From positions 70,517-134,516 of the forward strand of contig NZ_FOFB01000009.1 in NCBI RefSeq assembly GCF_900110645.1: a stretch of 64,000 bases of DNA, given 5' to 3'. Each line of letters starts with the position of its first letter. The first letter of the stretch is position 1. Positions 1-61,765 of this stretch are shown piece after piece. The notes below the pieces were generated by a model. That model was not told the origin of the DNA. It searched no databases and saw only the letters and a program-made list of their open reading frames with translations. This DNA comes from Neolewinella agarilytica. Lineage in GTDB: Bacteria > Bacteroidota > Bacteroidia > Chitinophagales > Saprospiraceae. A program made the position numbers and the translations under genes.

Positions 1-433
1 CGAGTTCATAGCCGGCGCGAAAAGCGATAAAGTCGCGGCCACGATCAATCAGGTTTCGGGGTGCTGCAGGCAGGCTGTGGAGATAGGCATTGAACAGGAA
101 ACCGGTATCCTGGCCGTAGGCGGCCATGATCCAGACACCCGTAATCGGGGTGTCGTGAAAGATAAGCTCGTCATCAGCTCCCTGCCGCTCCCGGTGAAGG
201 TTACGGAGCGAGCCAATGGTGTCATAACCCATATCACAGGTGGAGAGAACGCTGACGGTTTCGTTAAAAGGAATGAGCGCCAGCGAGGCAGAGGCCGTGC
301 TCGGGGCGCTGCGCAGTTGCAGGCCCGAGCGGGCAATTACACGGTTGAATGCCGGATCTACTGTGTCTGCATGGGCGCGGACGCAGGTGCAAAGGAAGAG
401 AACCAGGAGCAGGGGGGGAATACGCATCTTCAT
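1..433 (-). CDS. Secreted SH3-like domain protein (partial, C-terminus outside window)
   Basis: Reading the minus strand from the ATG at 433 gives an open frame to the window edge (144 codons seen), so the C-terminus is missing. Residues 1 to about 22 form a signal peptide (basic start, then IPPLLLVLFLC, likely cleavage after ARA or AHA). The segment NRVIARSGLQLRSAPS followed by LIPFNETVSVLS is typical of bacterial SH3 (SH3_3) domains, in which a 'GLnvRsaPs' strand is followed by a 'l.kGe.V.Vl' strand; these bind peptides or cell-wall material. The rest is unassigned. The gene is divergent from the nucleotidase gene at 702. A copy of the dispersed 20-bp element lies inside the signal-peptide codons and encodes LCTCVRA. 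The SH3 assignment is from pattern only. Confidence 0.6.
   Translation of the reverse strand, partial: MKMRIPPLLLVLFLCTCVRAHADTVDPAFNRVIARSGLQLRSAPSTASASLALIPFNETVSVLSTCDMGYDTIGSLRNLHRERQGADDELIFHDTPITGVWIMAAYGQDTGFLFNAYLHSLPAAPRNLIDRGRDFIAFRAGYEL
373..394 (-). repeat. Dispersed 20-bp element, copy 1
   Basis: On the minus strand this reads TTTGCACCTGCGTCCGCGCC. It lies within the signal-peptide codons of the SH3-like protein and is translated as LCTCVRA. Confidence 0.75.
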
Positions 434-613
434 AGGTATACTTTTTCAGTACACTACAAAAGTGCGCCCCGCTGACCGGGGAAATGGGGAGAATTAGAAT
501 TTGCGGGAGTATGGGGAGAATTCGTTTTTATTCTCAGGTATTCGTGCAGCGGAAGGCTGAATACAGCCTGAACACCAGGGAAGGGAGCCTCTTTTGCTCC
601 TTCAACATCCTCC

Positions 614-633
614 TTGCACCTGCGGCCGCGCCC
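614..633 (+). repeat. Dispersed 20-bp element, copy 2
   Basis: TTGCACCTGCGGCCGCGCCC, in the intergenic DNA between the divergent SH3-like and nucleotidase genes, about 70 bp before the nucleotidase start. Confidence 0.75.
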
Positions 634-701
634 TGAACTATGGAATTGCCGGATTCCAACGTCTCTACCGTAAATTGTACCCACCACCAATTAAGATACC
701 C

Positions 702-2225: not shown

Positions 2226-2255
2226 TAGGGTGGTAGTGGTCGTACTGAATTGACG

Positions 2256-2263
2256 TACCTTCG
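2256..2263 (+). promoter_or_regulatory. Candidate Bacteroidota -7 box (TACCTTCG)
   Basis: TACCTTCG matches TAnnTTTG at 7 of 8 positions and ends only 5 nt before the ATG at 2269. Transcription from it would start about at the start codon, giving an almost leaderless mRNA. Confidence 0.4.
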
Positions 2264-3640: not shown

Positions 3641-4390
3641 ATGAATTCTGCCGTAAAAGTCTTAATCGTTGAAGATGAAATGATCATCGCTGCCAAGATC
3701 AGTATGCATCTGGAACAGTTGGGCTATGAGGTCGTTGGTATTCTCCCCAGGGGAGAGGAAGCCGTTGTGCAGTGCCGACAGTCGCCACCTGATATATTGC
3801 TATTGGACATCAACCTCAAAGGAAACCTTGACGGCGTCGAAACCGCTCAACTTCTCCTGAAGGAAGATATCATTGTGCCCACTATCTTCCTGACGGCAAA
3901 TAGCGATCAGGCGACTTTTGACCGGGCAAAATCGACGCTCCCGCAGGCCTTCCTGACCAAGCCCTACCGCAAAACAGAACTTTCCCGGGCTATTGACCTT
4001 GCGGTTGCGAACGCTTCCACTGCACCTGCGTCCGCGCCCCAATCCGCCGCCATCTCCGAGGATGCTCACTTGCTCAGCGACCGCATCTTCGTTCGCCACA
4101 AAGAGCGTATGGTTAAGCTTTTCCTGAAAGATATCCTCTACGTTGAAGCAGAACGTGCTTACTGTAAGATTGTAACCTCCTCCACGGAATACCTCTTAAG
4201 TATCGCTCTTGGTAAACTGGAGGAACAATTGACCTCGCCCACCTTTATGCGCGTACACCGCTCTTACCTCATCAACCTGTCTCAGATTGATGAAATTGCA
4301 GAAGGCCACGTAGCTATTGCTGGCAAAGCCATCCCTATCGGTAAGTCACACCGGGAGGCTTTTATTGCGCGGGTGAATTTGATTCGGTAG
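3641..4390 (+). CDS. LytTR response regulator (REC + LytTR)
   Basis: 249 aa. Residues 5-120 are a receiver domain: acidic pair ED at 11-12, phosphoacceptor Asp56 in LLLDINL, a Thr in FLTAN and the conserved Lys in FLTKPYRK. A short Ala/Pro/Ser linker (about 125-140) joins it to a LytTR DNA-binding domain (about 148-245) with the family signatures DILYVEAERAYC and FMRVHRSYLINL. The linker codons APASAP are a copy of the dispersed 20-bp element. The LytTR domain is clearly related to the LytTR-only protein at 36308. The partner kinase is not adjacent; the HisKA_2 kinase at 32963 is the best local candidate (inference). A TACCTTAA box about 30 bp upstream may be its -7 element. Confidence 0.9.
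   Translation: MNSAVKVLIVEDEMIIAAKISMHLEQLGYEVVGILPRGEEAVVQCRQSPPDILLLDINLKGNLDGVETAQLLLKEDIIVPTIFLTANSDQATFDRAKSTLPQAFLTKPYRKTELSRAIDLAVANASTAPASAPQSAAISEDAHLLSDRIFVRHKERMVKLFLKDILYVEAERAYCKIVTSSTEYLLSIALGKLEEQLTSPTFMRVHRSYLINLSQIDEIAEGHVAIAGKAIPIGKSHREAFIARVNLIR
4021..4039 (+). repeat. Dispersed 20-bp element, copy 3
   Basis: TGCACCTGCGTCCGCGCCC inside the REC-LytTR linker; translated in a different frame from the signal-peptide copies (APASAP). Confidence 0.75.
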
Positions 4391-7500: not shown

Positions 7501-10500
7501 GCTGCCAGGCCGGAGGCCTGGCTTTGGTCAAGACCGGCATCGTGATTCCAGGCATAACGGTAAGGAGCCAGCCCGCCTTCTACCTCAATGCTGATACTGC
7601 CATTGTCTTCTCCACAACGGCTGTTTTCCAGACTAAGGAGGTTCAGGGCCGAAGGACCAGCCTCAAGGCCGATGGAGAACGTTACAACGGTGATGCAGTT
7701 GTTGGCATCCGTGACGGTGACGGAGTAGTCTCCCGATGCGAGCTCACTAAAGCGGTCAACATTCTCGCCGGCGGCATGACTCCACTGGTAGGTGAAAGGC
7801 GCGTTTCCAGTGAGGACGGAGATGGTGGCCTGTCCGTTGCCGTCTTGGCAGCGGGTGTCGACCAGGTTGCTCACTTCAGCAGAAACCCCTTCACTGTCTT
7901 CGAGGGAAGTGCTGATTTCTGCGGAGCAGCCGTTGGCTCCGGTGATGGTGACGGAATAATCGCCGGCTGCCAGACCAGCGGCCATTGGTGCATTGAGCGT
8001 TTCGTTATGGCTCCATCGGTAGCTGAATGGAGGGGTTAGCCCCGTAGCACTAACGGTAATGCTGCCGTTCTCATTCCCACAACTAGGTTCGGTCGTTTGG
8101 TCCATACTGACCAGCGGTGTCTCGCTGCCGGCTACCGCAAAGTCAGCGCTGACGGTGCAATTGTTGGCATCGGTAAGAATGACGGTATAGGTTCCCCCCG
8201 CCAGGCCAGAGGCAATAGCGCCTTCCAGTTCTGGGTCATGGGACCATCTAAAGGTGAAGGGAGCCGTTCCGCCTGAAGCCGAAACTTCCAGCGCACCATT
8301 GTTCTCTCCACAGCTGGTCGGCGTATTAGCGATGAGTTCGACGTTTTCCGGCCCGGTTAATCCGCTGATCTGGAAGTCTGCCGTTTCCGTACAGCCGTTC
8401 TGATCGATGATGGTAACGCTGTGGTTGCCTTCAGGAACGTTGGTGGCTTCCGGACCGGATAGCGCCGCATCATGGCTCCAGAAGAAGAAGTAAGGCCCGC
8501 GCCCACCCTGTGGTTCTACCATTGCCTGCCCGTCATTTTGGGCGCAAGTCGCAGGTGCAAGGGTGAATTCAGGGAGCAGTGCGGTTACCTCCGTTTCTAC
8601 GCTTGCGGTCAAGGCGGCAACGCAGCCCGTTGCATCGGTAAGGGTGATGCCATAGGTGCCGGCCGACAGGCCGCTGGCCGTGTTTGCGTCCAGTTCAGTA
8701 TCGTGGCTCCAGCTGTAGGCGAACGGAGCAGTTCCGCCACCGTCGTAAGAAATCAGAATTACTCCCGTCTCTGCATTACAGGTATCCATTGAAATGCTGC
8801 TTATGCTGATGGTCGGACCGTCCTGGCTGCTCACTGAGGCCGTTGTCTCCGCCCGGCAACCGCCGTCACCCGTAATAGTAACACTGTAGTTGCCGCTGCC
8901 GAGATCTTCCGCCAGCGGACTATCTAGTTCCAAATCATGACTCCACTCATAAGCTAGAGGGGGCACTAATCCGCTTACGGAGACCAATATTGATCCATTG
9001 TTTTCTCCGCAGTTGGCATCAATGACTTCCTCTACGATTATTTCCGGGCTTTCGCTCTCATCGATGGTGTAAACGTCAGCCACCGGGCAACCATTCACAT
9101 CCGTGATGGTCACTTCGTACTGGCCTGCAGCCAGCCCGATCGCGAGGCCCGTGTCCAGATCATCGTCATGAGACCATTTGAAAACATAGGGAGCACTACC
9201 CCCATCAGGTGCTACTTCAAGCGTACCGTTATTTTCACCACAGATAGTAGATCGCTGATTGATAACATTTACTCCTGCCGGACCATTGATAAATTCAATC
9301 TGAAAGACCTGAATCTCAAAACAGCCATTGGCATCCGTAATCGTTACGCCGTAGTCTCCGGCCGTAAGGTTCTGGAAATTGTCCACGTTTTCTTCGGGGG
9401 CGTGCGACCACTCAAAGGTGAAGGGTTCCGTTCCGCTGGTGACAGAGATCGTGGCGCTGCCAGAATCTTCTTCACAGATAGCATCACTTAATCCCGTAAG
9501 ACTGGTGGTAAGTGCGTCCTGCCCGGTCAGGGTAAGCATAATGCTGGCGGTACACTCATTTGCGTCAGTAATGTCGATGGTGTAATCATCAGGAGCGAGG
9601 CCAGTGGCCGTCGGGCCGTCGAGGGTGTCGTCATGGCTCCAGACGTAAGTCAGGGGAGCGGTGAGTCCTTCAGCGAGGACGGTAATTTGTCCGTTGTCTT
9701 CTCCGCAACTTGGATTGGTTTGGCTGCCGATGCTGAGCGTCGGTGTGGCGCTGCCGTCAATGGTAAATACATCCGCTACGGAGCAATCGTTAGCGTCGGT
9801 GATGGTGACCTCGTAGTCTCCGGCAGCGAGGTTGGTCGCGACGCCGTCTTCCAACTCGTTGTCATGACTCCAGGCGAAGGTGTAAGGGCCCGTGCCTCCT
9901 TCCGGTGCGACTTCCAGGCTGCCATTATCTTCTCCACAGGTCGTTGCCTGCTGGCTGATGAGGGTCACGCCGGCCGGGCCGGCGATGAAGTCGATGCTGA
10001 AGGTCTGCACGTCTGTACAGCCGTTGGCATCGGTAATGGTGACGCTGTAGTCGTCGGCTTCAAGATTGTCGAAACTGGCCACATCTTCGCCCGGGGCGTG
10101 CGACCACTCGAAGGTGAAGGGTTCCGTTCCGCTGGTGACAGAGATCGTGGCGCTGCCAGAATCTTCTTCACAGATAGCATCACTTAATCCCGTAAGACTG
10201 GTGGTGAGTGCGTCCTGCCCGGTCAGGGTAAGCATGATGCTGGCGGTACACCCATTTGCGTCAGTAATGTCGATGGTATAATCATCAGGAGCGAGGCCAG
10301 TGGCCGTCGGACCGTCGAGGGTGTCGTCATGGCTCCAGACGTAGGTCAGGGGAGCGGTGAGTCCTTCAGCGAGGACGGTAATTTGTCCGTTGTCTTCTCC
10401 GCAACTCGGATTGGTTTGGCTGCCGATGCTGAGCGTCGGTGTGGCGCTGCCGTCAATGGTAAATACATCAGCTACGGAGCAATCGTTAGCGTCGGTGATG

Positions 10501-13500
10501 GTGACCTCGTAGTCTCCGGCAGCGAGGTTGGTCGCGACGCCGTCTTCCAACTCGTTGTCGTGACTCCAGGCGAAGGTGTAAGGGGCCGTGCCTCCTTCCG
10601 GTGCGACTTCCAGGCTGCCATTATCTTCTCCACAGGTCGTTGCCTGCTGGCTGATGAGAGTCACGCCGGCCGGGCCGGCGATGAAGTCGATGCTGAAGGT
10701 CTGCACGTCCGTACAGCCGTTGGCATCGGTAATGGTGACGCTGTAGTCGTCGGCTTCAAGATTGTCGAAACTGGCCACATCTTCGCCCGGGGCGTGCGAC
10801 CACTCGAAGGTGAAGGGTTCCGTTCCGCTGGTGACAGAGATCGTGGCGCTGCCCGTTCCGTTGTCACAGATGGCATCACTGCGTTCGCTGAGACTGGTGG
10901 CAAGAGCGTCCTGTCCGGTCAGGGTAAGCATAATGCTGGCGGTACACCCATTTGCGTCAGTAATGTCGATGGTGTAATCATCAGGAACGAGGCCAGTGGC
11001 CGTCGGGCCGTCGAGGGTGTCGTCATGGCTCCAGACGTAGGTCAGGGGAGCGGTGAGTCCTTCAGCGAGGACGGTAACCTGTCCGTTGTCTTCTCCGCAA
11101 CTTGGATTGGTTTGGCTGCTGATCGTCAGCACCGGCAGATCACTCGCTTCAATGGTAAATACATCGACTACGGAGCAATCGTTAGCGTCGGTGATGGTGA
11201 CCTCGTAGTCTCCGGCAGCGAGGTTGGTCGCTATGCCGGTGTCTAGCTCATCATCATGGGCCCAGTCGAAGGTGTAGGGCGCGGTGCCACCGACCGGGGA
11301 AATGCTTAGACTGCCGTTGTTCTCGCCACAGGTGGTTCCCTCGTTGCTAACAGAATTTATGGCAGACGGGCCGAGTTCCAGACCTACGAAGAAGTCGATC
11401 CCGAAAGTGGCACCGTTAACATCAGTCACCGTGACTGTATAATTGCCGCGAGCAAGGTTGTCGAAGGAGGCTTCATTAACGCCTGGTGCGTGGGACCAGG
11501 CGTAGAAGAAGGGGGCTGTACCCGAGAGCACATTTACCTCCGCGGCACCATTATCATCAGTACATACTGAGTTTCTGAGGTTAATGATTTCTGCGGTCAG
11601 GCCTTCGGTAAGCACTACCGTGAGTTCAACGGCACAGTTGTTAACATCGGAAACGGAAACGGTGTAACTGCCTGCGGTCAGGTCATCCGCCAAAGGGGCA
11701 TCAACGGTATCGTCATGACTCCACTGGTAAGTAAGCGGATCCGTGAAACCAGAGGTCGTGATGCTGATGGAGCCGTTAGCCAACCCTCCGGTGGGGTTGA
11801 CCTGCTCGTCGAGATTAACGGTGGGTGCGGCGCTACCTGCAACGGTGAAGGTCTCAGTGAAGGAACAATTTTGAATGTCGATTATCGTCAGGGTATAGTC
11901 GCCCGGAGCGAGTTCAGTCAGGGTCGGGTCATTTACCTCGGGGAAATCAACCCAATCATACTCAAAGGGTGGATTACCACCGACGGGGGCAACGGTTAAT
12001 ACTGCATTGCTCTCTCCACAGGTGGTTCCTTCGTTGGCCGTTGCAACGATTGCCGTGGGGCCTGAGCGGGAGACGATAGAGAAACTCACAACCGTCATTG
12101 CACCTGCGTCATCGCTCACTGTAACCATGTAGTTGCCACCGGCGAGATTGTCGAAACTGTTAACATTTTCACCTGGAGCGTGTGACCACTCATAAGTGTA
12201 AGGGAATTCACCGACGTTGACCAGAATGGTGGCTTCCCCATCGTCGTTTGAACAGCCTGCGTCCCGAAGATTGATGACCCGGGCACTAATAATGGGTACG
12301 CCCAACTGGATAGTGATCATCTCTGAACAGCCTGGTTCATCGGAAACGGTAAGCGTATAGGTCCCCGCCGGAACACCTTCCAGGAACGGAGAATTGATAC
12401 TGGGATCGTGGCTCCAGCTATAAGTGATCGGTTCGGTAAATCCGGAGACTACTACACCGATCTCACCGTTGGCCATGCCATCAGTAGGCTGGAATATGTA
12501 GTCGAGGATGATCTCTGGTTCGGGAGCAGGCTCAACGGTGAAGACTCTGCTAAGCGAACAGCCCTGTCCGTCGGTGACCGTCACGGCGTAATCGCCGATA
12601 GCCAGGTCGGTCAGTTCTCCATTCGTTACGTCCAGGAAATCGGCCCAATTGTAAGTGTATGGAAATTGTCCGTCCGCGGGTAAGAGCTCCAGGGTGCCAT
12701 TGTCCAGCCCGCAGGAGGCGGGGCGGGAGTAGGAGAAAAACTCAGAGAACCCACCCTCAAATTCAAGCTCGAAACTGAGGTTGAAAGTAGCACCGGTAGC
12801 GTCTGAGACCTGCACACTATAACTTCCTTCGGAGAGATTTTCGAATGAGGGGACATCCTCACCCGGCGCGTGGGACCAGGCGTAGCTGTAGGGCGCAGTA
12901 CCGGTCAGTACGTTCACCTCCGCCGTGCCGGTGTTGTTGGTACACACCGGATTGTTGACATTGATGAGTTCGGCGATGAGCCCGGAGTTGAGCACTACGG
13001 TTACTTCGTCGTAGCATAGGTTGGCGTCCTGAACGCCGACGGTATAAGTGCCGGCAGACAGGTTAGCTGCTATTGGTCCTTGCAGGTTATCGTCATGGCT
13101 CCAAAAATAAGTAAGTGGAGGCACGAAACCAGTCGTGGAGATGGTGATTGAACCATTATTCGCCCCTCCGGTAGGGTTCACCTGGTTGGTAACGCTGACG
13201 GCTACCGGGGCGCTACCATTGATGGTATAGGTTCCGCTAACGGTACAGCCATTGGCATCGGTTACCGTCAGGTGGTAATCGCCCGCCGGACCGCTAATGC
13301 CATCGAAGCCATTGGTCTGACCACTGGTCTGATCGGCTATTTCTGCCCAGTCGAATACATACGGGCGCAAACCTCCGGAGGCATTTACGTAGAGGAAGCC
13401 ACTGCCGTTCCCGCAACGGGTATGCACTTGGGTGAATAGGTTCAGGGTTGGGGGTTCGTCGACGTTTATACGACCGGACCACTGTCCCGTACAGCCGGTA

Positions 13501-21983: not shown

Positions 21984-22025
21984 CGGATGAATATTGAAAA
22001 ACGGGAGGGATAGAATAGTGAGGGT

Positions 22026-22042
22026 GGCGCGGTCGCAGGTGC
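22026..22042 (-). repeat. Dispersed 20-bp element, copy 4
   Basis: On the minus strand GCACCTGCGACCGCGCC. It lies in the 139-bp gap before the giant adhesin gene and faces copy 5 in inverted orientation. Confidence 0.7.
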
Positions 22043-22103
22043 GGAGAAAGCTATTTTAAGAGCGATGGAGGGAAAGTGCTGCCACTGCTTCTTAATCCTT
22101 TCA

Positions 22104-22123
22104 CTGCACCTGCGGCCCCGCCC
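22104..22123 (+). repeat. Dispersed 20-bp element, copy 5
   Basis: CTGCACCTGCGGCCCCGCCC, touching the stop codon of the FN3 gene. Together with copy 4 it forms an inverted pair (15 of 17 bases complementary) around about 60 nt of leader. Confidence 0.7.
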
Positions 22124-35900: not shown

Positions 35901-36196
35901 TCATCATCAATGAGTTATTGACCAATACCATTAAGTATGCTTATACGGAACAAGGCGAGGGCGCAGCCGCAGGTGCAGTGGAGGTTAAACTGAGCAAGGA
36001 GACGAAGAAGACCTATCGCCTTACCGTTAAGGATAATGGCAAGGGCAAGGACTTTGCTGCCGGGGCCACCGGCACTGGTTTCGGCAGTCGACTGGTCAAT
36101 TTACTTACCCGGCAGCTGGGAGGTACCCTAACCGAAGAGAATGACGGTGGATTGAAGACAGAGGTGCTTTTTGAGGTAGCGGCTCCTCCGGAATGA
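32963..36196 (+). CDS. Membrane sensor histidine kinase, Reg_prop/Y_Y_Y/HisKA_2
   Basis: 1077 aa. Signal or anchor segment at 6-28 (FLQITISFILVSCCGKLYG). Residues about 40-720 are two-component-regulator propeller repeats (for example IDQAGMLWMS, QDELGFIWLGT, DDEGRIWAS). A Y_Y_Y domain follows (about 725-810, ending in VSPPWYLTWW), then one membrane helix (about 818-838) and a coiled linker. The kinase core is HisKA_2 type with LLKEIHHRVKNNLEVV (His880/881) and an HATPase domain with N-box LIINELLTNTIKYA and G-box DNGKGKDF. There is no receiver or HTH fused, unlike the hybrid systems of Bacteroides. It is divergent from the surface operon and followed by a LytTR-only gene, so it probably senses an external ligand and controls LytTR proteins (inference). 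Confidence 0.88.
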   Translation: MAALKNILFLQITISFILVSCCGKLYGQWLPVEEVEVLLPNGDVYEKSMEVVHIDQAGMLWMSRYPDGLGVYDGEKMIPYGFENGLSTNVWYVSQDELGFIWLGTRNTASERGGVQRSSKPFLNGILPKDGVFLDSLPGLPLLDVEVSALKKDELGNLWAASVDSLLIRYHVDAEGTVSADTIAPPTGVFGGLMIAFKEQQAYLLDRDASRLYRVPIDYEVGDTMEQVELPGSTVGNIHFGPGDRLYWKGAERLFMADAPLAKPLEDIKNNIRELEMGAVKENFVFPDNETMLVQSTGNLIEINTNTLSIRRIYDSALDLNVKPLLDIFKGRTGNIWLATNDGLARMPVDYRAYLSPNLHSTGLSTGLGDEATVQAARMTGPEGKWLTIGTSQGLLLRSEEGTWTAVGEAEGLPYPQVLGVASDDEGRIWASSRQRGINLLTPESNPHDIRVASKTLNLFDRPYLIHQIPSLSSYVPSALNLERASGGDPVPSIWGGNGTFGMVLSDDEPWYLFTKETGLETAVLTFYEKDEQEHVIAANIQTGIFRSKEPFTFEEVQRLATKGKAVSKNRSFAGVRDTGLFEHIPLIWNDVVFPAITIIRKWENELWAGVPGGVLILDLNTLKAREFVSLQDTLRTPTDIAFDPDRNRAWVVTGLGLCEVHLENYELLNVIRKADGLRGEIGYGPQCTVLDETGTIFFGSEKGLAAYRPELARHAKDSFALYVRENDLYQNGWGKNEAYFSYAALDYDNRKKQYQTKLEGYDEEWSDWSKDASLRYTNLPAYLFPKVYKFRVRSQTTNGDWVENEVPTKIEVSPPWYLTWWAALIGLGLLALMIRWFLRFQLRRQAEALALQEAAVIKQQRDEIQKKSDQNELLLKEIHHRVKNNLEVVSSLLELQSAGLTDSEARDAMQAGQSRVQSMGLLHQKLYQGENLAAIEMKGYFGELASSLLESFEAEEKLKVKVDMAPLELDVDTAVPLGLIINELLTNTIKYAYTEQGEGAAAGAVEVKLSKETKKTYRLTVKDNGKGKDFAAGATGTGFGSRLVNLLTRQLGGTLTEENDGGLKTEVLFEVAAPPE
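35959..35977 (-). repeat. Dispersed 20-bp element, copy 7
   Basis: On the minus strand TGCACCTGCGGCTGCGCCC. Encodes GAAAGA in a loop of the kinase ATPase domain. Confidence 0.65.
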
Positions 36197-38727: not shown

Positions 38728-38747
38728 TTGCACCTGCGTCCGCGCCC
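38728..38747 (+). repeat. Dispersed 20-bp element, copy 8
   Basis: TTGCACCTGCGTCCGCGCCC in the rplM-rpsI gap. Identical over 20 bp to the minus-strand reading of copy 1 near 373. Confidence 0.75.
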
Positions 38748-48700: not shown

Positions 48701-51700
48701 AAATGGCCTTTTAATGGAAGCCTCCTTTACGGGGTTGTCAACCTGCTCCACAATCGCGTCTGCTGACCTCATCGCCTGTACCGATCCCTGTACTGACGCC
48801 CTAGGCGGTAACGTCTTCAATGATTTCAATAACGACGGCGCGGACGCAGGTGCAAGCGAAGTTGGACAAAGCAATGTGCTCGTCGAAGTCTATGAATGCG
48901 ATAACGATGTCCCCGTCGCGACCACTTATACTAACGCTGATGGCGATTGGAGTGTAGATGACACCAATATCACTTATCCCGTTCGTGTGGAGTTCTCCAC
49001 ACCATTGCAGGATTACCTCCAGCCTGGTGTCGCAGGCATGAACAACGGCACGAATGTGCAGTTCGTAGAGGCACCAACCTGTCAAGTGATTTATGGTGTA
49101 CTAAACCCCAGTACTTATTGTGGCGAAGATGTCTCATTAGTTACCACCTGTTACCTCGGAGGTGACAACACTGGCGGGCAGGCAGCAGTTTTAACCTGGT
49201 CCTACGAAAATGTAGGACTTGGACCAAACGATAAACGTTCTGTCTCAACGGTAGGTCAGGTTGCTTCTGCCTGGGGAGCGTCTTACAATACTTCTGAAAA
49301 AGAGTTGTTAGTGGCCGCAGTGCTGAAGCGGCATAGCGGTTTGCATTATGAGGCAGACGGGAGCGGTGGCCTTGATGCTATTTACGCTATTGATCCGTTT
49401 TCCAGCAATCCAAACGGGACGATCTGGCTAGAGCTCGATGACGATCTTGGTATTGATGTAGGTTCCATTCCTGATAATGCAGGCCGTGGGTTAGGAGCTC
49501 CAACCGCACCTAGTAATGACGTAGAGGCATATGATAAAGCGGGTAAAGTTGGAATCGGTGATATCGACCTAAGTGAAGATAACAGTCGCCTTTACGTGAT
49601 GAATCTGTTCGACAAAACGCTTTACGAAATTGACGTAGCAACCAAAACACTGGTAAACAGCTATCCTGTACCGGACCCTGGATGCGCCAATGGCGACTAT
49701 CGCCCCTGGGCTGTACAGTACCATAAGGGCAAAGTATATGTAGGGAGCATTTGTGATGGCAGTGAGGCGGGCAAGAACGCTACTGCTGGAGATGCATTGA
49801 CCAACGAAACCGGCCGTTCGGATCTACGTGCCTACGTATACAAGCTATCCGATGGTACTTTCAACGAAGTATTGGATTTCTCCCTGGATTATACCCGCGA
49901 ACCACCTGATCAATATAATGGAAGCTGTAATACCTCTGATGGCTGGTTTCCCTGGGTGCAAAGTAACGAAGTGCCCCTTTCATGTGTGTTTTTTAACCCT
50001 ACAAATGTTATCGGTTATCCTCAACCGTTGCTCACTGATATTGAGTTTACGGATAGCGGAGACATGATTCTGGGCTTTCTGGACCGTACAGGCTTACAAA
50101 TAGGCAATGGTAATTACGGACCCACTGGAACGACGCTTTACGGCCTGGCTTCCTCCGGAGATATTTTACACGCTTGTGCAGACGGCGCTGGTGGGTTTAC
50201 CCTCGAAAGTCCGGAATGTGCCAACGTAAATGGGCATTTCCTCAATTCAGATTCTGGGGAATACAATGCCTTTCCGGATGGACACGGAGAATATTATGGT
50301 GGCGATTTCTTCCACAATAATGGTACATTTTCTAATCCGAACGAATTTCCGGGCCATTCGGAGATTACGCTTGGGGGGCTGGCGGTGCTTAGTGGTAGTG
50401 GAGAAGTAATAGCTAATGCCTACGACCCGGTTACGGGAGGAAATAATTTCGGCACTGGTGGAATAATTCGATTGAGCACAACTACCGGTATGCGTACGAG
50501 TAATGGCTTCCAGCTTTACGATGCCAGTGATGTGGGAACCTTTGGTAAGGGGGTGGGTATAGGCGATTTGGAAATCATCTGTGGCGAATCCCCCATCCAA
50601 ATCGGAAACTACGCCTGGGTCGACACCGACGAAGACGGTGTTCAGGATGCCTGTGAGGAGCCCGTAGAGAATCTCCCCGTTTCTCTTTACACCAAAGATG
50701 ATAACGGAGACCTGACACTGGTCGCCACTACCACTACAACTGCCGATGGAGAATATTACTTCACCGGCGACGGTACGACCGGCGAAACCTGGACAAACAT
50801 CGACGATGTGATCCTGAAAGATACTACCTACCTCATCGTCTTTGGCGATGCCGCAACGGCACCAACGGATACTACAATCCTGGCTGGTGGTGTTGAATAC
50901 ACCATTACAGCAGACTCAACGGGCGAAGGCAATAGCCCGGGGCTTAACGATTCAGATGCCATCCTGATGAATGTCAATGGAACCATGCTGCCGGCCATTT
51001 GCTATAGTACCGCTGATACCACCGATCATACGCTCGACGTCGGCCTTAAGTCCGTTGCATTTCTCAGCATCGGCTCCACCGTCTTCGAAGACCTGGACAA
51101 TAACGCCCTGCAAGACGTTGACGAAGACGGCATCCCCAACGTGGAGCTCGTTATCTACCAGCTTGTGGGCAACAAAGACGATGCCACCAACGGCGAAACG
51201 GACGATATTCTTCTCGATGTAGGCTCCGACGGCGATCTGTCCACGGCCACTGACGGCATGCCACTGGTGACTGACGCCAACGGCGATTACCTCGTCACCG
51301 GCCTCCAGCCGGGCGATTACTACCTGGTTATTCCCTCGGGCAACTTCGCCGATGGCGAAGCGCTGAACGACATTTCGATTTCCTCTACGGACATCGCGAC
51401 CTCAGCAGCGGATAACCAACGGGATGGCGACGATAACGGCCTGCAGCCCGCTGGCCCGGCGACTGAAGTGTGCAGCCCCGTCATCACCCTCTCCGCTGGA
51501 GACGAACCGGAAGACGGCACGGACCCCGACGAAGAAACGGGCTCCGGCTCCACTCAGGACAATGCCTCGCCCCTCCGCGATGACAACGGCGATATGACGG
51601 TCGACTTCGGCTTCTTCCGTCCGCTCAGCATCGGCTCCACCGTCTTCGAAGACCTGGACAATAACGCCCTGCAAGACGTTGACGAAGACGGCATCCCCAA

Positions 51701-53662: not shown

Positions 53663-53696
53663 ACCAGCCCAAAGAGTTTGCGCCTTATCCTTGTCA

Positions 53697-53713
53697 GGCG
53701 CTGCCGCAGGTGC
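53697..53713 (-). repeat. Dispersed 20-bp element, copy 10
   Basis: On the minus strand GCACCTGCGGCAGCGCC; intergenic, about 95 bp before the asparaginase start. Confidence 0.6.
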
Positions 53714-53806
53714 TGGCGCAGGCTGAAAGAGCAAGGAAAGCCTTCCGTAAGAAAAGGCTCCAAAGGGCGAAAAAATCCTACCTTAGCCAGCAAAACACTC
53801 CCGCTG

Positions 53807-54880
53807 ATGGCTATGCGTACCCTCTTACTCTGCTCCCTTATTCTTCTGCTTTGCACCTGCGACCGCGCCACCTCTGAATCGGACCCGGAAGCTGAAAAAA
53901 CTGCTGCTATGGAAGCTCCTTCTACGCCCGCTCCCGAATACGCCATGGTTATCCACGGCGGTGCCGGTACCATCCTGCCCGAAAACATGACGCCCGAGCG
54001 GGCCGCTGGCATCAAAGCAGCCATGAACGCCGCCCTTGATGCCGGAGAGGCCGTCCTCAAAGCCGGCGGCTCCGCCGCCGATGCCGTCGAGAAAACGATC
54101 TGGGTAATGGAAGACAGCCCCCACTTCAACGCCGGTAAGGGAGCCGTTTTTACCAACGCCGGCATCAACGAAATGGACGCCAGCTTCATGACGGGCCACG
54201 ACCAAAACGCTGGCGCCATCGGCGGCGTCACCAACCTCAAGCACCCCATCAGCGGTGCCCGGGCCGTGCTGGAAAAGTCCGAACACGTCCTGCTATCCGG
54301 TAAAGGTGCCGAAGAATTCTCCATCCTGCAGGGACTGGAAACCGTCGACCCCAAGTACTTCTGGACCGAACACCGCTGGGCCGCCCTGCAGCGCGCCCTC
54401 GAAGGCGAAAAGGTAGAACAGGAAAAAATTGAAGGCAATCGTATCATCGAGGAAATTGACCGGAAGTACGGAACCGTCGGTTGCGTCGCCCTGGATAAAT
54501 CCGGTAACCTCGCCGCCGGCACCTCCACCGGAGGCATGACCAACAAACGCTACAATCGCCTCGGAGACAGCCCCCTGATCGGCGCCGGCACCTACGCCGA
54601 CAACGCCACCTGCGGCGTTAGCTGTACGGGATGGGGAGAGTTCTTCATCCGCTATGCTGTAGCCTACGATGTACACGCCCGTATGGCCTACGGAAACGCC
54701 TCCGTACAGGATGCTGCCGATGCCGTCATCAACAAAACCCTCGTAGAAAAAGGAGGCACTGGCGGCCTCATTGCCCTTGATGCAAAAGGCAACGTCGCCA
54801 TGCCCTTCAATACGCCCGGTATGTACAGAGCTTACCTGAAGGCAGGGGGCGAACGGGAGATTTTCTTTTACAAAGAATAG
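53807..54880 (+). CDS. Isoaspartyl peptidase/L-asparaginase (Ntn hydrolase) lipoprotein
   Basis: 357 aa from the ATG at 53807 (another Met two codons later); the longer frame upstream has no signal and crosses the intergenic element. N-terminus LLLCSLILLLCTC suggests a lipoprotein. The plant-type asparaginase fold is complete: YAMVIHGGAGTI, HFNAGKGAVFTNAG with NEMDASFM, the autoprocessing site YGTVGCVALD with nucleophile Thr223, and GTSTGGMTNK plus GAGTYADN for substrate binding. The proenzyme cleaves itself before Thr223 to give alpha and beta chains, then hydrolyses isoaspartyl dipeptides or asparagine. The codons for LCTCDRA are a copy of the dispersed element, like LCTCVRA in the SH3-like protein. 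Confidence 0.92.
   Translation: MAMRTLLLCSLILLLCTCDRATSESDPEAEKTAAMEAPSTPAPEYAMVIHGGAGTILPENMTPERAAGIKAAMNAALDAGEAVLKAGGSAADAVEKTIWVMEDSPHFNAGKGAVFTNAGINEMDASFMTGHDQNAGAIGGVTNLKHPISGARAVLEKSEHVLLSGKGAEEFSILQGLETVDPKYFWTEHRWAALQRALEGEKVEQEKIEGNRIIEEIDRKYGTVGCVALDKSGNLAAGTSTGGMTNKRYNRLGDSPLIGAGTYADNATCGVSCTGWGEFFIRYAVAYDVHARMAYGNASVQDAADAVINKTLVEKGGTGGLIALDAKGNVAMPFNTPGMYRAYLKAGGEREIFFYKE
53851..53870 (+). repeat. Dispersed 20-bp element, copy 11
   Basis: TTGCACCTGCGACCGCGCCA within the lipoprotein signal codons of the asparaginase gene (LCTCDRA). Confidence 0.75.
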
Positions 54881-57782: not shown

Positions 57783-59060
57783 ATGAAATACTCCATCCAG
57801 CTTTTTCTTTTATTCTTGCTGCCCTTTATCCTGCCGGCGCAATCTTCCATTACCTACCTCCACTGCGGTCGTATTCTCGACGGGGTGGGAGGGGAGTTAA
57901 CCGAGCAAACTATCGTGGTGGAAGATGGAAAAATCAGTCGTATTGAGGCAGGTTATGTGGGCGCTGCCGCAGGTGCAAAGGTGGTTGATTTAAAGCAGAG
58001 CACCGTCATGCCCGGTTTTATTGATCTGCACGTACACGTAGAGTCTGAGTTAAACCCCCGGGCCTACATTGAACGCTTCACCAAGAACCCCGCCGACGTC
58101 GCCCTCCGGGCCACGACCTACATGCGTAAGACCATCGCTGCTGGCTTCACCACCGTGCGTGACCTTGGGGGCAGCGGGGTAAATATCTCCTTGCGGGATG
58201 CCATTAACGAAGGCTATATCATCGGCCCCCGCATCTTTACGGCGGAGAAAGCCATTGCAACCACCGGCGGCCACGCCGACCCCTCCAATGGCCGCAACGA
58301 AGAACTGGCTTTTGATGCCGGGCCGGAGGCCGGCGTTGTTAATTCCGCCGACGAAGCCTGGAAGGCGGTCCGGACCCGCTATAAAAACGGAGCAGACTGC
58401 ATCAAAATCACTGCCACCGGAGGGGTGCTCTCCGTTGCCAAAGACGGTCAGGGCGCTCAGTTCCGCAACGAGGAGCTGGAAGCTATTGTCACCGCGGCCA
58501 AAGAATACGGCATGCACACCGCCGCCCACGCCCACGGTGTTGGTGGAATGCAACGTGCCATCAAAGCTGGCATCACCACCATTGAGCACGGGACGCTGAT
58601 GGACGATGAAACCGCTGACCTCATGATCGAATACGGGACTTACCTCGTGCCCACGCTCAGTGCCGGCTCCTACGTCGCCGAGAAAGCCAAAACCCCCGGC
58701 TTCTTTCCGGCCATCATCGTTCCCAAAGCCATCGAGATTGGCTCGCAGCAAAAAGAAATATTCACCCGAAACTACGCCCGCGGCGTGAAAATCGCTTTCG
58801 GCACCGACTCCGGAGTGAGCCCCCACGGAGACAATGCCAAGGAGTTTGGCTACCTCGTGGAATGTGGGGTTAAGCCCATGGACGCCATTATATCCGCCAC
58901 GTCTACGGCCGCCATGATCCTGGGGCAAAAAGAAACGCTTGGGCAAATCAAACCCGGCTTTACCGCTGATATTGTGGCCGTGTTGGGTAATCCATTAGAG
59001 GATATTCATCTACTGGAAAAGGTGGATTTTGTGATGAAGGACGGGCGGAGAGTGAAGTGA
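57783..59060 (+). CDS. Secreted amidohydrolase (imidazolonepropionase/prolidase-like)
   Basis: 425 aa from the ATG at 57783, chosen because it starts a clear signal peptide (IQLFLLFLLPFILPAQ). The frame is open further upstream, but there it overlaps the divergent DoxX-like gene. Metal-dependent amidohydrolase fold: HVH at 83-85, the Lys in IKITATGG (probable carbamylated bridge), His in AHAHG and IEHGT, and the Asp in GTDSG. The C-terminal barrel edge LGQIKPGFTADIVAVLGNP is standard. Members of this group hydrolyse Xaa-Pro or other N-acyl dipeptides, or cyclic amides; substrate not predictable. Copy 12 of the dispersed element encodes GAAAGAK in the N-terminal beta-sandwich. Confidence 0.88.
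   Translation: MKYSIQLFLLFLLPFILPAQSSITYLHCGRILDGVGGELTEQTIVVEDGKISRIEAGYVGAAAGAKVVDLKQSTVMPGFIDLHVHVESELNPRAYIERFTKNPADVALRATTYMRKTIAAGFTTVRDLGGSGVNISLRDAINEGYIIGPRIFTAEKAIATTGGHADPSNGRNEELAFDAGPEAGVVNSADEAWKAVRTRYKNGADCIKITATGGVLSVAKDGQGAQFRNEELEAIVTAAKEYGMHTAAHAHGVGGMQRAIKAGITTIEHGTLMDDETADLMIEYGTYLVPTLSAGSYVAEKAKTPGFFPAIIVPKAIEIGSQQKEIFTRNYARGVKIAFGTDSGVSPHGDNAKEFGYLVECGVKPMDAIISATSTAAMILGQKETLGQIKPGFTADIVAVLGNPLEDIHLLEKVDFVMKDGRRVK
57959..57980 (-). repeat. Dispersed 20-bp element, copy 12
   Basis: On the minus strand TTTGCACCTGCGGCAGCGCC, in the amidohydrolase gene (GAAAGAK). Confidence 0.7.
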
Positions 59061-59205
59061 GCCGATCAATGCAAAGTGTGCGGCCAACAACTTTTACGTA
59101 CGATTGTCTCTGTCTTTGCATTCGTGTAGTAAGAACACAGAATAAATAATGCTGTATTTTGTGGTCGCAGGTGGATTGTCCTCCTCCGGATTTTAAGTAT
59201 CGATC

Positions 59206-61713
59206 ATGCAAAATTTACTTCGTTCTTGTTTTACTCTTCTTTTCTTTTTTACGCTTGCTGTTTCCTTTGCACAGATCAACGTTCGGCCGAGCGGAAGCAG
59301 TGGCAGCGGTTATCCGGCAATACTTGCCGCCGGGCTTGATTATGAGGACCCCGACTGTGTTCATACCACCTTCGGGCCACACATTACTCAACATTTTGAT
59401 GAGTTGCTGCAGCGGAACGTTTTCCGTTTTCACAGCCACATTGAGGAAGATAACGATCGTTGCCGGGTCTTTGACCGCGTTCGTATGGAGATCAAAGGTG
59501 GGCCTAACACCAACCCGGAGGCCCAGCACCTGATCAATACCAGCTCCTGGTATCGCTGGAAGTTTAAGCTACCCGCTGACTTTGTGGGCACCTCTTCCTT
59601 TTGTCACATCTTTCAGAATAAACTCGTTGGCGGAGAGGATGCGGGTTTACCCATTCTGACCCTGACGGCCAGGGCTTCTGTCTTGCAGTTTAGTCACAGA
59701 GGCGGAGAAACGGGCACGGACCTCGGCGTGCTGACTCAGGCAGACCTTGACCTTTTCCGTGGCCGCTGGGTGGAAGTTTACCTTAGACAATTACACGCCG
59801 AAGCCGGAGAAGTAGAACTGAATATCCGCGACCTCAGCACCGGAGAGACCATTCTGGCCTACGAGAATAACAATATCGACCTCTGGCGAACGGGCGGCCA
59901 ATACGACCGGCCGAAGTGGGGGATTTACCGCAGTAAGTCAGCGGTGCTGAAGGATGAAACGGCTGACTTTGCCGACTTCTGTATCTCCGAAAGCAGCGCC
60001 GCTCTTTGCCCGCCGGAGCCTACTCTAATTGCGGATACCGAAGCACCGACGAGCCCGCAGAATCTGGTCGCCAGTGAGGTGATGATCGCCTCACTGAACC
60101 TTAGTTGGGACGCAGCAACGGATAACATCGGAGTGGATGCTTACCGCCTCTTTCAGGACGGGACGGAAGTCTGGTCCGGGCAGGCAACATCAACCACGGT
60201 TAGTGGGCTTAGGGGCTCAACGACCTACGACTTTTCCGTCCGGGCAATTGACCCCTCAGGTAATGTTTCCGGCTTTAGCGATACGCTGTCCGTTACCACT
60301 ACCGATTCAACGGCTCTGCCCGGGCTGCCCGGCAGTCCTTTTCCCGGAGATGGCGCCACGAATCAGAACACAGAAGCTACGCTCCGATGGAGTGGCGGCG
60401 ATAATACGGTAAGCTATAACGTCTATTTTGGTACGGAGACGGACCCGCCGCTGGTCCGCAATCAAAGCGGAACGTCTTACGTGCCGGATTTAGCGGAATC
60501 GACCACTTATTACTGGCGCATCGGGGGAGTGAATGATTACGGAGAGACACTAAGCCCGCTGTGGACTTTCACTACGGGAACGGGTAACACGGATGCTCCC
60601 TGGTATCTCTTCCGGGGCAACGCCCGGCCGGAAGAGGAAGGCGACCTATGGGAACTTAATAATGCCCCCGATGCCCCCATCGTTGACGCTACGTCCACAG
60701 ATCCGGCAGCGGCGGAAAACTCCTTCTATTCCTTCCATGATGCCAGCGGAGACAATTTCCGCTGGCGCTACCGCTATACGGAAAGCGATACTTCCATTAC
60801 GGTAGTTGCCCGCTTTAAGGCCATCTCTCCGGAGGTCGACGGGATTAGCTTTTTTGAAATCCGGGGCTTCGGCTGGCGGGAGAAAGTCCGCATTAATCAG
60901 TCCTCCGTCAGACTGGAAAGATCGGTGTCGTCGGCCGAACGAGCATTGCCCTTTGACCTGAGTGAAGACTTTCATGTTATCAGAATTACGATGTCAGGAC
61001 CAAACGTAACGGTCTATCTCGATGAAGACCCAGAGCCTTTTTTAATGGGCATTAGTGCGGAAGAAAACACCAGCGAATTTTTTGAATGGGGCAAATCTTC
61101 CGGACAGGAATATGGGGCTACCATTGACTGGATTGCCGTAACGGTTAACGGAGAGTATGCTCCGGGCGAAGGGGCGGAGCTGCCAGAGGACCTTGTGTTG
61201 AGCCGGGATGCAGCCCTGTCAGAAATCACTATTGACGAGGTGCCGATCGATACTTTTGCCCCGGATGTTACGACTTACTACTACGATTTCTCCTCCGGGG
61301 AATTACCGCTTATCGATTTTCAAACACGGTCCGCTTTGGCGAGCACTGAAGTGATGATGGAAGAAGGAACAAGCTCCATCATTCATACGATAAGTGTTAC
61401 GGCCGAGGACGGTATTACTAAGCGGGATTACGTGGTCGTCGTGATCTTCCCGCTCTCTTCCGAAGACCCTGCCTTCGCCACCGTTCAACTCTTCCCTAAC
61501 CCGGTAGAGAGCTTCCTGCAAGTGGATATGGGAGATCTGTCATTGGTTGGCGGAGAGATATTGCTCTACGAAAGTTCGGGGCGCTTTCTTCGGTCGTACC
61601 AACTTAATGGGGAGCCACGACTCGATCTTAGCGGCGTGAAACCCGGCCTTCACACTCTGCTCTTTCAACTGGCCGACGGCCGGAGTTTTGCCCGCCGGGT
61701 AACCATTCGCTGA
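59206..61713 (+). CDS. Polysaccharide-lyase-like T9SS-exported protein
   Basis: 835 aa. Signal peptide 1-22 (FTLAVSFAQ). Residues about 40-265 form a jelly-roll with RMEIKGGPNT, WYRWKFKLPADF, a His in HIFQNKL, RWVEVYLR and RPKWGIYRS...LKDE, the layout of heparin-lyase-I-like/Polysacc_lyase domains. Two FN3-like modules follow (about 277-365 and 372-462), then a second LamG-like jelly-roll (about 465-660), a cadherin-like segment and a type-A T9SS sorting domain (LFPNPVESFLQVD...RRVTIR). Likely an exported lyase or carbohydrate binder acting on acidic polysaccharides; catalytic residues cannot be confirmed from sequence alone. It stands 145 bp after the amidohydrolase. Confidence 0.75.
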   Translation: MQNLLRSCFTLLFFFTLAVSFAQINVRPSGSSGSGYPAILAAGLDYEDPDCVHTTFGPHITQHFDELLQRNVFRFHSHIEEDNDRCRVFDRVRMEIKGGPNTNPEAQHLINTSSWYRWKFKLPADFVGTSSFCHIFQNKLVGGEDAGLPILTLTARASVLQFSHRGGETGTDLGVLTQADLDLFRGRWVEVYLRQLHAEAGEVELNIRDLSTGETILAYENNNIDLWRTGGQYDRPKWGIYRSKSAVLKDETADFADFCISESSAALCPPEPTLIADTEAPTSPQNLVASEVMIASLNLSWDAATDNIGVDAYRLFQDGTEVWSGQATSTTVSGLRGSTTYDFSVRAIDPSGNVSGFSDTLSVTTTDSTALPGLPGSPFPGDGATNQNTEATLRWSGGDNTVSYNVYFGTETDPPLVRNQSGTSYVPDLAESTTYYWRIGGVNDYGETLSPLWTFTTGTGNTDAPWYLFRGNARPEEEGDLWELNNAPDAPIVDATSTDPAAAENSFYSFHDASGDNFRWRYRYTESDTSITVVARFKAISPEVDGISFFEIRGFGWREKVRINQSSVRLERSVSSAERALPFDLSEDFHVIRITMSGPNVTVYLDEDPEPFLMGISAEENTSEFFEWGKSSGQEYGATIDWIAVTVNGEYAPGEGAELPEDLVLSRDAALSEITIDEVPIDTFAPDVTTYYYDFSSGELPLIDFQTRSALASTEVMMEEGTSSIIHTISVTAEDGITKRDYVVVVIFPLSSEDPAFATVQLFPNPVESFLQVDMGDLSLVGGEILLYESSGRFLRSYQLNGEPRLDLSGVKPGLHTLLFQLADGRSFARRVTIR

Positions 61714-61746
61714 CGGTAACCAACGACCCTTTGACGGCGTTCCGCT

Positions 61747-61765
61747 TTGCACCTGCGGCCGCGCC
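61747..61765 (+). repeat. Dispersed 20-bp element, copy 13
   Basis: TTGCACCTGCGGCCGCGCC in the 62-bp gap between two convergent genes; matches copy 2 over 19 bases. Confidence 0.75.

What the first reader, a model, noticed from the sequence alone, without database searches (positions are those of the whole stretch)
373..61765. Dispersed GC-rich 20-bp element, at least 13 copies in 64 kb, in both genes and spacers
Seen: the 9-mer GCACCTGCG (either strand) occurs about 15 times; chance in 64 kb of equal-base DNA would give about 0.5. In 13 copies the match extends to TTGCACCTGCGKCCGCGCCC or close variants. Copies lie in both orientations, in spacers (614, 22026, 22104, 38728, 53697, 61747) and inside genes (373, 4021, 27883, 35959, 48837, 53851, 57959), read in different frames. 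So conservation is of DNA, not protein. Inference: a small insertion-like element, an uptake- or segregation-type signal, or a protein/methylase target, comparable in style to HIP1 or DNA uptake sequences but not one I know.
Basis: partly seen in the sequence, partly recalled or inferred. Interest (0 to 1): 0.8.

Follow-up and report, generated by a model that had tools for sequence, protein, structure and literature searches.

The report
Uptake-like DNA tag in Neolewinella
Marine bacteria of the genus Neolewinella carry hundreds to about a thousand copies of a species-specific DNA tag that seems to arise by point mutation and whose same-orientation copies avoid lying within about 3,000 bases of each other, which looks like a 'take up my own DNA' signal in a bacterial phylum where none is known.

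Summary
The window holds 15 GCACCTGCG (0.44 expected); its genome, a Neolewinella (Bacteroidota), holds 386 exact TGCACCTGCGNCCGCGC and none in the reversed control.

The motif is essentially genus-bound: 19 of 20 other genus genomes have it, against 0 of 39 outside. It has dialects: one species carries 826 TTGCTACTTTG (control 4), another 182 TTACCTGCGCNCCGCC (control 0). The logo fades gradually over about 45 bp. In clear cases copies arose by substitution. One copy between rplM and rpsI persists in 11 of 21 genomes.

Unexpectedly, same-orientation copies avoid each other within about 3 kb (10 pairs, 75.5 expected), while opposite-orientation copies beyond 1 kb do not. The G010 dialect agrees (6 vs 36.3).

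Best reading: a DNA-uptake sequence analogous to DUS/USS, read with polarity. ComEC and helix-hairpin-helix proteins are present; secretin was not found in 17 genomes searched. The deepest-branching species uses another motif and alone keeps a DUF5689/receptor-like pair resembling Riemerella transformation proteins. Uptake itself is untested; a Chi-like or architectural polar site remains possible.

The parts
373..392 (-). motif copy, exact TTGCACCTGCGTCCGCGCCC, in the signal-peptide-like start of a minus-strand reading frame (LCTCVRA, read by eye)
   Evidence: score 35.6
614..633 (+). motif copy, exact TTGCACCTGCGGCCGCGCCC; divergent partner of the copy at 373
   Evidence: 33.8
4020..4039 (+). 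motif copy in the ORF 3641..4390 (APASAP frame, linker-like)
   Evidence: 39.2
8541..8560 (-). degenerate motif copy inside the 5797-aa repeat protein ORF
   Evidence: 25.0
12098..12117 (+). degenerate motif copy inside the 5797-aa repeat protein ORF
   Evidence: 26.9
15215..15234 (-). weak site (core GCACCAGCG) in the protein repeats; may be repeat-driven
   Evidence: 22.6
17291..17310 (-). weak site (core GCACCAGCG) in the protein repeats; may be repeat-driven
   Evidence: 24.4
22025..22044 (-). motif copy in a spacer, divergent pair with 22104
   Evidence: 30.4
22104..22123 (+). motif copy in a spacer, divergent pair with 22025
   Evidence: 35.7
27883..27902 (+). motif copy (variant spacing of the second half) within the 2236-aa ORF
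   Evidence: 24.6
35959..35978 (-). motif copy near the 3' end of a histidine kinase gene (GAAAGA frame); core also present at the same place in G002 and G009
   Evidence: (34.5)
38728..38747 (+). motif copy in the rplM-rpsI spacer; intact or near-intact in 11 of 21 genus genomes
   Evidence: 37.5
48836..48855 (-). motif copy in the 2592-aa ORF (GADAGA frame)
   Evidence: 33.0
53696..53715 (-). motif copy just upstream of a lipoprotein-like gene start (read by eye), divergent pair with 53851
   Evidence: 25.1
53851..53870 (+). motif copy in a lipoprotein-like signal peptide (LLCTCDRAT, read by eye)
   Evidence: 30.4
57959..57978 (-). motif copy in an amidohydrolase gene (GYVGAAAGAKVVDL)
   Evidence: (38.2)
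61747..61766 (+). motif copy in a spacer between two converging ORFs
   Evidence: 27.6

Best explanation
The element is a genus-specific DNA-uptake (self-DNA recognition) sequence, analogous to the DUS of Neisseriaceae and the USS of Pasteurellaceae but independently evolved in Bacteroidota. Inferred mechanism: an outer-membrane or surface receptor binds the ~45-bp site (consensus about CYTTGCACCTGCGNCCGCGCCCAAA here) on free DNA; fragments with the site enter and recombine preferentially; this biased exchange lets point mutations that create or improve sites accumulate wherever the encoded protein tolerates them; receptor specificity drifts between species, giving dialects. The site is read with polarity: a second site in the same orientation within ~3 kb adds nothing or does harm, while a site in the other orientation counts separately, so the two orientations form two nearly independent sets. 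SHOWN by computation: number, genus restriction in the genomes searched, dialects, graded logo, substitution origin in examples, orientation-specific exclusion, presence of ComEC and HHH proteins, no secretin in the 17 genus genomes searched. INFERRED: that it works in DNA uptake, that a receptor reads it with polarity, and that molecular drive maintains it.
For: Number and control: 386 vs 0, 1202 vs 4. Genus restriction: 19 of 20 genus relatives vs 0 of 39 others; of 395 phylum genomes only three, with one hit each, outside the genus. Dialects: 826 vs 4, 182 vs 0. Graded logo in two dialects. Surplus of copies with 1-3 mismatches (31, 31, 14 vs 0, 0, 0.4). Substitution origin: G000 and G003 encode the same FAPAAAPYHEY with different codons; of 162 site-by-partner comparisons 73 are conserved and 32 lack the motif with no gap inside it. 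Permissive sites: 30 of 78 intergenic. The rplM-rpsI copy is kept in 11 of 21 genomes in spacers that otherwise hardly align. ComEC open in 21 of 21; HHH_3 in 16 of 17 searched. The three-HHH gene carries two copies in G000 and own-dialect copies in 8 of 13 aligned orthologs, G000 included. The species with the deviant dialect is the only one of 21 with DUF5689 and its receptor-like neighbour; these resemble proteins essential for transformation in Riemerella (PMC8459023, sections 19 and 21 read). R. columbina prefers its own DNA (PMC7965970, abstract and passages).
Against: No uptake or transformation of a Neolewinella was measured here or found in print. ComEC and HHH proteins also occur in relatives without the motif (37 of 40 and 25 of 26 genomes searched, genus members included). 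Secretin was found in 0 of 17 genus genomes, so no type IV pilus route as in DUS/USS; the receptor in the 20 other species is unknown. The link between the deviant motif and the DUF5689 pair is a single evolutionary event. Samples (45-100 kb each) of four DUF5689-bearing outgroups gave no comparable motif. In H. influenzae uptake does not depend on USS orientation (PMC1939737, passages), so the orientation rule is not a known uptake-sequence property; a simple directional-coverage model would deplete convergent pairs at least as far out as same-orientation pairs, yet they are depleted only below 1 kb. Of the gapped comparisons, six show 15 or more gap letters in the partner (three in spacers, three in the HHH linker against G005), so indels cannot be excluded for some copies.
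Confidence: 0.55

Rival explanations
1. Chi-like polar recombination site: a helicase-nuclease that enters at a DNA end is switched by the site only when it meets it in one orientation, so each orientation needs its own set of sites every few kb.
For: It explains best the independence of the two orientations and the ~3 kb same-orientation exclusion; density of about one site per 3.8 kb (123 in 464 kb) is in the range recalled for E. coli Chi.
Against: A graded motif of ~45 bp is far longer than Chi (5-8 nt, recalled). Species-level dialects within one genus and absence from the sister genera searched are not Chi-like. Strands are balanced, whereas Chi is skewed to the leading strand (recalled).
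Confidence: 0.15
2. Chromosome-architecture or segregation anchor: a nucleoid or SMC-linked protein binds the polar site and sets loops or domains of a few kb.
For: Genome-wide on both strands with spacing rules over kilobases; close divergent pairs enriched (26 vs 6.3); no preference for gene direction (26 along, 22 against).
Against: A dialect change as large as GCACCTGCG to GCTACTTTG inside one genus is unexpected for a core chromosome function; no such system is known to me.
Confidence: 0.12
3. Mobile or REP-like repeat spread by a transposase, the orientation rule arising because two copies in the same orientation within ~3 kb are excised together.
For: Multi-copy dispersed element; close divergent pairs occur; same-orientation exclusion would fit excision between direct copies; some copies fall where the partner has a gap.
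Against: No sharp edges. Orthologous places without the motif and without gaps, in one case with identical protein. The same place is kept in 11 of 21 species. Hairpins of the motif are no better than shuffles (z -0.64 to 0.13). A RAYT search was not made.
Confidence: 0.04
4. The orientation rule is only passive purging: direct repeats within 3 kb are lost by deletion, inverted ones are not, and the motif's function is unrelated to polarity.
For: Would produce the same-orientation deficit at short range.
Against: ~20-bp repeats kilobases apart recombine rarely (general knowledge). Control words show no such deficit (400 random 7-mers: same-orientation pairs <3 kb mean 54.3, minimum 23; motif 9), though they are shorter than the motif and so a weak control.
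Confidence: 0.08

Closest known systems
DNA uptake sequence (DUS), Neisseriaceae
   Same: Highly over-represented; species dialects that follow phylogeny; effect of bases falling off with distance from a short core; permissive intergenic sites and inverted pairs (PMC3630211, abstract and passages).
   Different: Unrelated sequence and phylum; longer graded motif; no secretin found; same-orientation avoidance within 3 kb.
Uptake signal sequence (USS), Pasteurellaceae
   Same: Core plus weaker flanks; evolves by point mutation, not insertion (PMC7811141, section 8 read); tolerated in coding regions.
   Different: USS uptake is orientation-independent (PMC1939737, passages); USS lie about 1 kb apart (PMC7811141, summary), here about 3.8 kb; machinery differs. 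Even spacing of USS was claimed by Karlin et al. and disputed (both as told in PMC1939737).
Natural transformation of Riemerella (Flavobacteriaceae)
   Same: Same phylum; ComEC and an HHH protein; no T4P homologs found there (PMC6533540, passage); R. columbina prefers its own DNA (PMC7965970, abstract and passages); a DUF5689/receptor-like pair occurs in one Neolewinella.
   Different: No uptake motif is described in the Riemerella passages I saw; 20 of 21 Neolewinella lack a detectable pair.
Chi sites
   Same: Polar, genome-wide, every few kb (recalled).
   Different: Chi is 5-8 nt and strand-skewed (recalled); here ~45 bp with dialects and balanced strands.
HIP1 of cyanobacteria
   Same: Highly repeated short word in genes and spacers (recalled).
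   Different: HIP1 is an 8-bp palindrome (recalled); this motif is long and asymmetric.

Membership tests
DNA uptake sequences (DUS/USS type) | Extreme over-representation on both strands of the chromosome | tested here: met
   386 vs 0; 1202 vs 4
DNA uptake sequences (DUS/USS type) | Restricted to a clade, with dialects following species | tested here: met
   tree of 19 genus genomes
DNA uptake sequences (DUS/USS type) | Sites arise by point mutation, not insertion | tested here: met
   clear examples; not shown for every copy: 57 of 162 comparisons had gaps in the motif (51 small or complex, 6 with 15 or more gap letters in the partner)
DNA uptake sequences (DUS/USS type) | Enrichment in spacers and permissive coding positions | tested here: met
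   30 of 78 intergenic in 11.4% of the DNA
DNA uptake sequences (DUS/USS type) | Competence genes in the host | tested here: met
   ComEC 21 of 21; HHH_3 16 of 17; DprA and ComF not searched
DNA uptake sequences (DUS/USS type) | Type IV pilus/secretin uptake machine with minor-pilin receptor (DUS: ComP) | tested here: not met
   Secretin PF00263 in 0 of 17 genus genomes searched; pilins not searched. Hence not filed as a member of DUS or USS, only as working like one
DNA uptake sequences (DUS/USS type) | Motif raises uptake of DNA by cells | not testable with these tools
   needs experiment
DNA uptake sequences (DUS/USS type) | No orientation dependence (as described for H. influenzae) | tested here: not met
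   same-orientation pairs <3 kb: 10 vs 75.5 expected. H. influenzae itself was not analysed here
REP/RAYT elements | Palindromic, intergenic element | tested here: not met
   48 of 78 genic; folding no better than shuffles
REP/RAYT elements | Y1 transposase (RAYT) in the genome | not tested
Chi sites | Short (5-8 nt, recalled) | tested here: not met
   logo spans about -24 to +23 around the core
Chi sites | Leading-strand bias (recalled) | tested here: inconclusive
   185/201 over 74 contigs of unknown order, but neighbours alternate
Chi sites | Alters a RecBCD/AddAB enzyme | not testable with these tools
   needs experiment

The most novel reading that the evidence does not exclude
A genome-wide polar self-DNA mark in Bacteroidota: two independent, strand-resolved sets of sites, each with a ~3 kb exclusion zone, read by a machine that travels along DNA in one direction. 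It would be an uptake system combining DUS-like self-recognition with Chi-like directionality, with a receptor that in 20 of 21 species is neither secretin-linked nor the DUF5689/receptor-like pair.
Probability: 0.35. Interest if true: 0.95.

Novelty: new variant of a known kind. Interest (0 to 1): 0.85.

Why it matters
[quoted passage not shown] A third, independent system in another phylum, apparently without a type IV pilus secretin, would let the field test whether uptake sequences arise by receptor bias alone. It would give a genetic handle (21 genomes, several dialects, one deviant dialect beside a machinery difference) for finding the unknown outer-membrane DNA receptor of Bacteroidota. 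The orientation rule, if confirmed, is a new statistical signature that any mechanism must explain, and it is directly testable.

Tried and rejected
Mobile element/REP: disfavoured by graded edges and gap-free places without the motif. Structured ssDNA: the GCG-KCCG-CGC hairpin idea was tested by folding, z -0.64 to 0.13; Rfam at gathering thresholds gave no hit in the window. Protein-motif explanation: rejected, several frames on both strands are used. Directional-coverage model of uptake: considered and only partly fitting. Viral spread: the scan returned 80 contigs, the cap, most with one match, roughly chance level by my own estimate; inconclusive. Uptake motif in four other genera with DUF5689 (G021, G022, G024, G039): nothing clear in 45-100 kb each. 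Replacement of the DUF5689 locus in G000: of seven proteins tried (six from the G010 locus, one G021 nuclease) only one matched the part of G000 held, and no receptor-like pair stands beside it; uninformative. De novo refinement mostly fell into codon periodicity or tandem repeats and was replaced by exact-seed logos. In one search the G000 spacing figures counted minus-strand sites twice; they were discarded and redone. One search crashed before its control, which was rerun.

Results against the orientation reading: the partial site list of G001 shows no overall alternation (49 of 89, p 0.4), although its close pairs obey the rule (1 same, 9 opposite). In one search five species alternate in fewer than half of a few pairs (G014 3 of 8, G015 2 of 5, G008 0 of 4, G011 1 of 4, G016 4 of 10), and G011 has 2 same-orientation close pairs against 1.1 expected.
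Full report
CHECK OF THE OBSERVATION. The window has 15 copies of GCACCTGCG on both strands, against a shuffle mean of 0.44 and maximum of 2; the 20-mer with up to three mismatches has 12 (0.02 expected). In the whole 6.2-Mb genome the exact 17-mer TGCACCTGCGNCCGCGC occurs 185 + 201 times and its reversed control never. The relaxed form GCWCCYGCGN(1-5)GCGCC occurs 1202 times against 4.

WHOSE GENOME. RpsB from the window matches Neolewinella aurantiaca, N. persica, N. antarctica and Lewinella sp. W8 at 89-90% and an uncultured Lewinella MAG at 98%. The rplM-rpsI spacers of G004, G014, G015 and G019 are identical to those of N. persica, N. aurantiaca, Lewinella sp. W8 and N. antarctica, so the window's genus (g1) is Neolewinella, placed by NCBI in Lewinellaceae, Saprospirales, Bacteroidota.

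ANATOMY. A logo from 101 core copies in 464 kb shows the core GCACCTGCG followed by NCCGCGCC, a pyrimidine-rich lead from about -24 with A rare at -19 to -16, an A-rich patch at -11/-10, C at -4 and T at -1, and an A-rich tail at +19 to +22. The edges fade gradually. Copies with 1, 2 or 3 mismatches to the 18 fixed bases number 31, 31 and 14, against 0, 0 and 0.4 for 20 letter-shuffled consensuses. The window has no Rfam match at gathering thresholds, and hairpins of the motif are no better than shuffles.

DISTRIBUTION AMONG GENOMES. Of 60 genomes (own, 20 of the same genus, 39 of other genera of the order) 20 have the 17-mer: own plus 19 of 20 same-genus genomes, and 0 of 39 others. Of 395 genomes across the phylum three, all of one distant genus, have a single hit outside the genus. 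Counts of the exact form differ widely inside the genus (0 to 581), because other species use dialects. G010 has 826 TTGCTACTTTG against 4 reversed; the other 20 genomes have 0-4. G001 has 182 TTACCTGCGCNCCGCC against 0; its sister G006 has 4, G017 has 1 and the other 18 have none. Further species of the second clade show variants such as TTGCTCCCGCG and, in G006, a spacing longer by two bases (small samples). The G010 logo from 70 copies has the same plan: CATTGCTACTTTG, two loose bases, AGCC, then A-rich. A tree of four proteins from 19 genus genomes plus one outgroup MAG puts G010 as the deepest branch (support 0.77) and broadly groups the dialects by clade (G002 and G018 were left out as incomplete).

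HOW COPIES ARISE. In one gene G000 has a full motif where G003 has other codons for the same residues, FAPAAAPYHEY (alignment; codons read by eye). Across the held DNA, 162 site-by-partner comparisons (not independent, some of core-only sites) gave 73 conserved within two differences, 10 absent with no gap within 20 bases (8 distinct places), 22 absent with no gap inside the motif, 51 with small or complex gaps and 6 with 15 or more gap letters in the partner (output partly cut). Those six lie in the rplM-rpsI spacer (three) and in the HHH linker against G005 (three), where an indel cannot be excluded. I saw no clean insertion with a duplicated target, but did not test for one systematically. 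The rplM-rpsI copy is present, intact or nearly so, in 11 of 21 genomes whose spacers otherwise hardly align; two more have remnants and eight lack it.

WHERE THEY SIT. With a home-made gene caller, 78 of 102 core copies with a good second half were placed: 48 genic and 30 intergenic, although DNA outside called genes is only 11.4%. Genic copies use the frames that give APASAP (linker-like), LCTCVRAQ (signal-peptide-like), ARAQVQ and GADAGA; 26 lie along and 22 against the gene, so an RNA-level function is unlikely.

THE ORIENTATION RULE. In 464 kb of G000, 100 of 120 consecutive sites alternate in orientation (p 5.5e-14); in 240 kb of G010, with another motif, 57 of 75 (p 7e-6). In a second list of G000 sites (84 of the 100 listed, contigs C19-C21) 63 of 81 alternate (p 5e-7). 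The pair correlation over these 207 G000 sites shows why (expectations for C19-C21 use contig lengths that I assumed). Same-orientation pairs below 3 kb number 10 against 75.5 expected (0, 0, 2 and 8 in 0-0.5, 0.5-1, 1-2 and 2-3 kb); opposite pairs are near expectation beyond 1 kb; close divergent pairs are in excess (26 vs 6.3 below 0.5 kb) and close convergent ones rare (3 vs 12.6 below 1 kb). G010 has 6 same-orientation pairs below 3 kb against 36.3. Fifteen other species samples, pooled (one, G001, without a hit to the pattern), give 13 vs 46.2 same and 57 vs 46.2 opposite, with weaker alternation (82 of 137, p 0.026; five species below one half on small numbers). A partial list for G001 (99 of 182 sites) gives 1 same and 9 opposite close pairs but no overall alternation (49 of 89); one for G010 (100 of 826) gives 6 and 24, and 64 of 97. 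Among 400 random 7-mers of similar frequency the highest alternating fraction is 0.67 and the fewest same-orientation pairs below 3 kb is 23, against 0.83 and 9 for the motif in 464 kb. A simulation with independent orientations and a 3-kb same-orientation hard core gives 0.71 alternation (0.65-0.79), so the exclusion explains most of the effect; the close divergent pairs may add the rest.

MACHINERY. ComEC (PF03772) is open in 21 of 21 genus genomes, and in 37 of all 40 searched, so it does not discriminate. HHH_3 proteins are found in 16 of 17 searched genus genomes; the miss is the 55%-complete G009. The G000 three-HHH protein resembles in domain content the HHH protein essential for transformation in Riemerella (PMC8459023, sections 19 and 21 read). 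Its gene carries two motif copies, and 8 of 13 aligned orthologs, G000 included, carry own-dialect copies (for seven; G001). Secretin was found in none of the 17 genus genomes searched; T4P homologs were likewise not found in Riemerella (PMC6533540, passage). DUF5689 (PF18942), the family of Riemerella RA0C_RS04920, is present in 15 of 19 relatives outside the genus but in only 1 of 21 inside it: G010, the species with the deviant motif. Its receptor-like neighbour was also found only in G010 (E up to 1e-10; its Pfam domain hits are below cut-off). Orthology to the Riemerella pair was not tested, and this is one evolutionary event. DprA, ComF and pilins were not searched.

INTERPRETATION. Apart from the orientation rule and the machinery, the pattern matches what is described for DUS and USS: extreme number, dialects congruent with phylogeny, permissive positions, point-mutational origin (PMC3630211 abstract and passages; PMC7811141 section 8; PMC2346458 first of three parts). 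I therefore take an uptake signal as most likely (0.55). It is not filed as DUS or USS: sequence, phylum and machine differ, and orientation matters here whereas in H. influenzae uptake does not depend on it (PMC1939737, passages). The rule says that the site is polar and that a second one in the same orientation within ~3 kb is redundant or harmful, while the opposite orientation is counted separately. A machine that meets the site while moving along DNA from an end would do this, which is Chi-like logic; hence Chi-like and architectural rivals keep about a quarter of the probability. A strand preference is on record for gonococcal transformation, but I saw only that title in a reference list.

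LITERATURE. Ten full-text searches of the CC-licensed PMC library (listings seen) turned up no uptake sequence described in Bacteroidota and nothing on this motif; subscription papers and preprints were not covered. PMC12616744 (passage) names Neisseriaceae and Pasteurellaceae as the only families known. PMC7965970 (abstract and passages) reports that R. columbina prefers its own DNA, so a preference exists in the phylum.

Noticed in passing
window 2848-2942 and 39273-39301: Inverted arrays of a 7-bp unit (GGTTGCA); TTGCAGGTT occurs 56 times in 464 kb against 6.5 expected, so a second, apparently unrelated spacer repeat family exists; similar short stretches of the rplM-tsf region recur in relatives.
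   Followed up: no
window 4590-21983 (-): A 5797-aa ORF made of repeats spaced about 231-234 bp and multiples, probably a giant surface protein.
   Followed up: no
window 40176-40253: Inverted repeat with 31-nt arms, 87% complementary, 16 nt apart, just after rpsB.
   Followed up: no
L099-L102 (G016): A dispersed element of about 60 bp (..GGAATTGACCCCGCTAATTCGG..CCGTCCCTTCCAGGGCC..), nine similar copies in 80 kb, unrelated to the motif.
   Followed up: no
L175-L179 (G021): The words GGTCAATCGG and AACCTGAAAC are strongly over-represented in a 100-kb sample of another genus of the family.
   Followed up: no
window 373, 53851 and several sites in L009-L023: Copies at gene starts encode LCTCVRAQ-like signal-peptide ends, so the tag supplies cysteine-containing ends of signal-peptide-like starts.
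   Followed up: partly
L175, L180, L185 (G021, G022, G024): The receptor-like/DUF5689 pair in these genera lies next to a gene with the FYNxENLFDT stretch (endonuclease/exonuclease-like, named by eye); in G010 and G022 it is followed by a methyltransferase-like gene.
   Followed up: no
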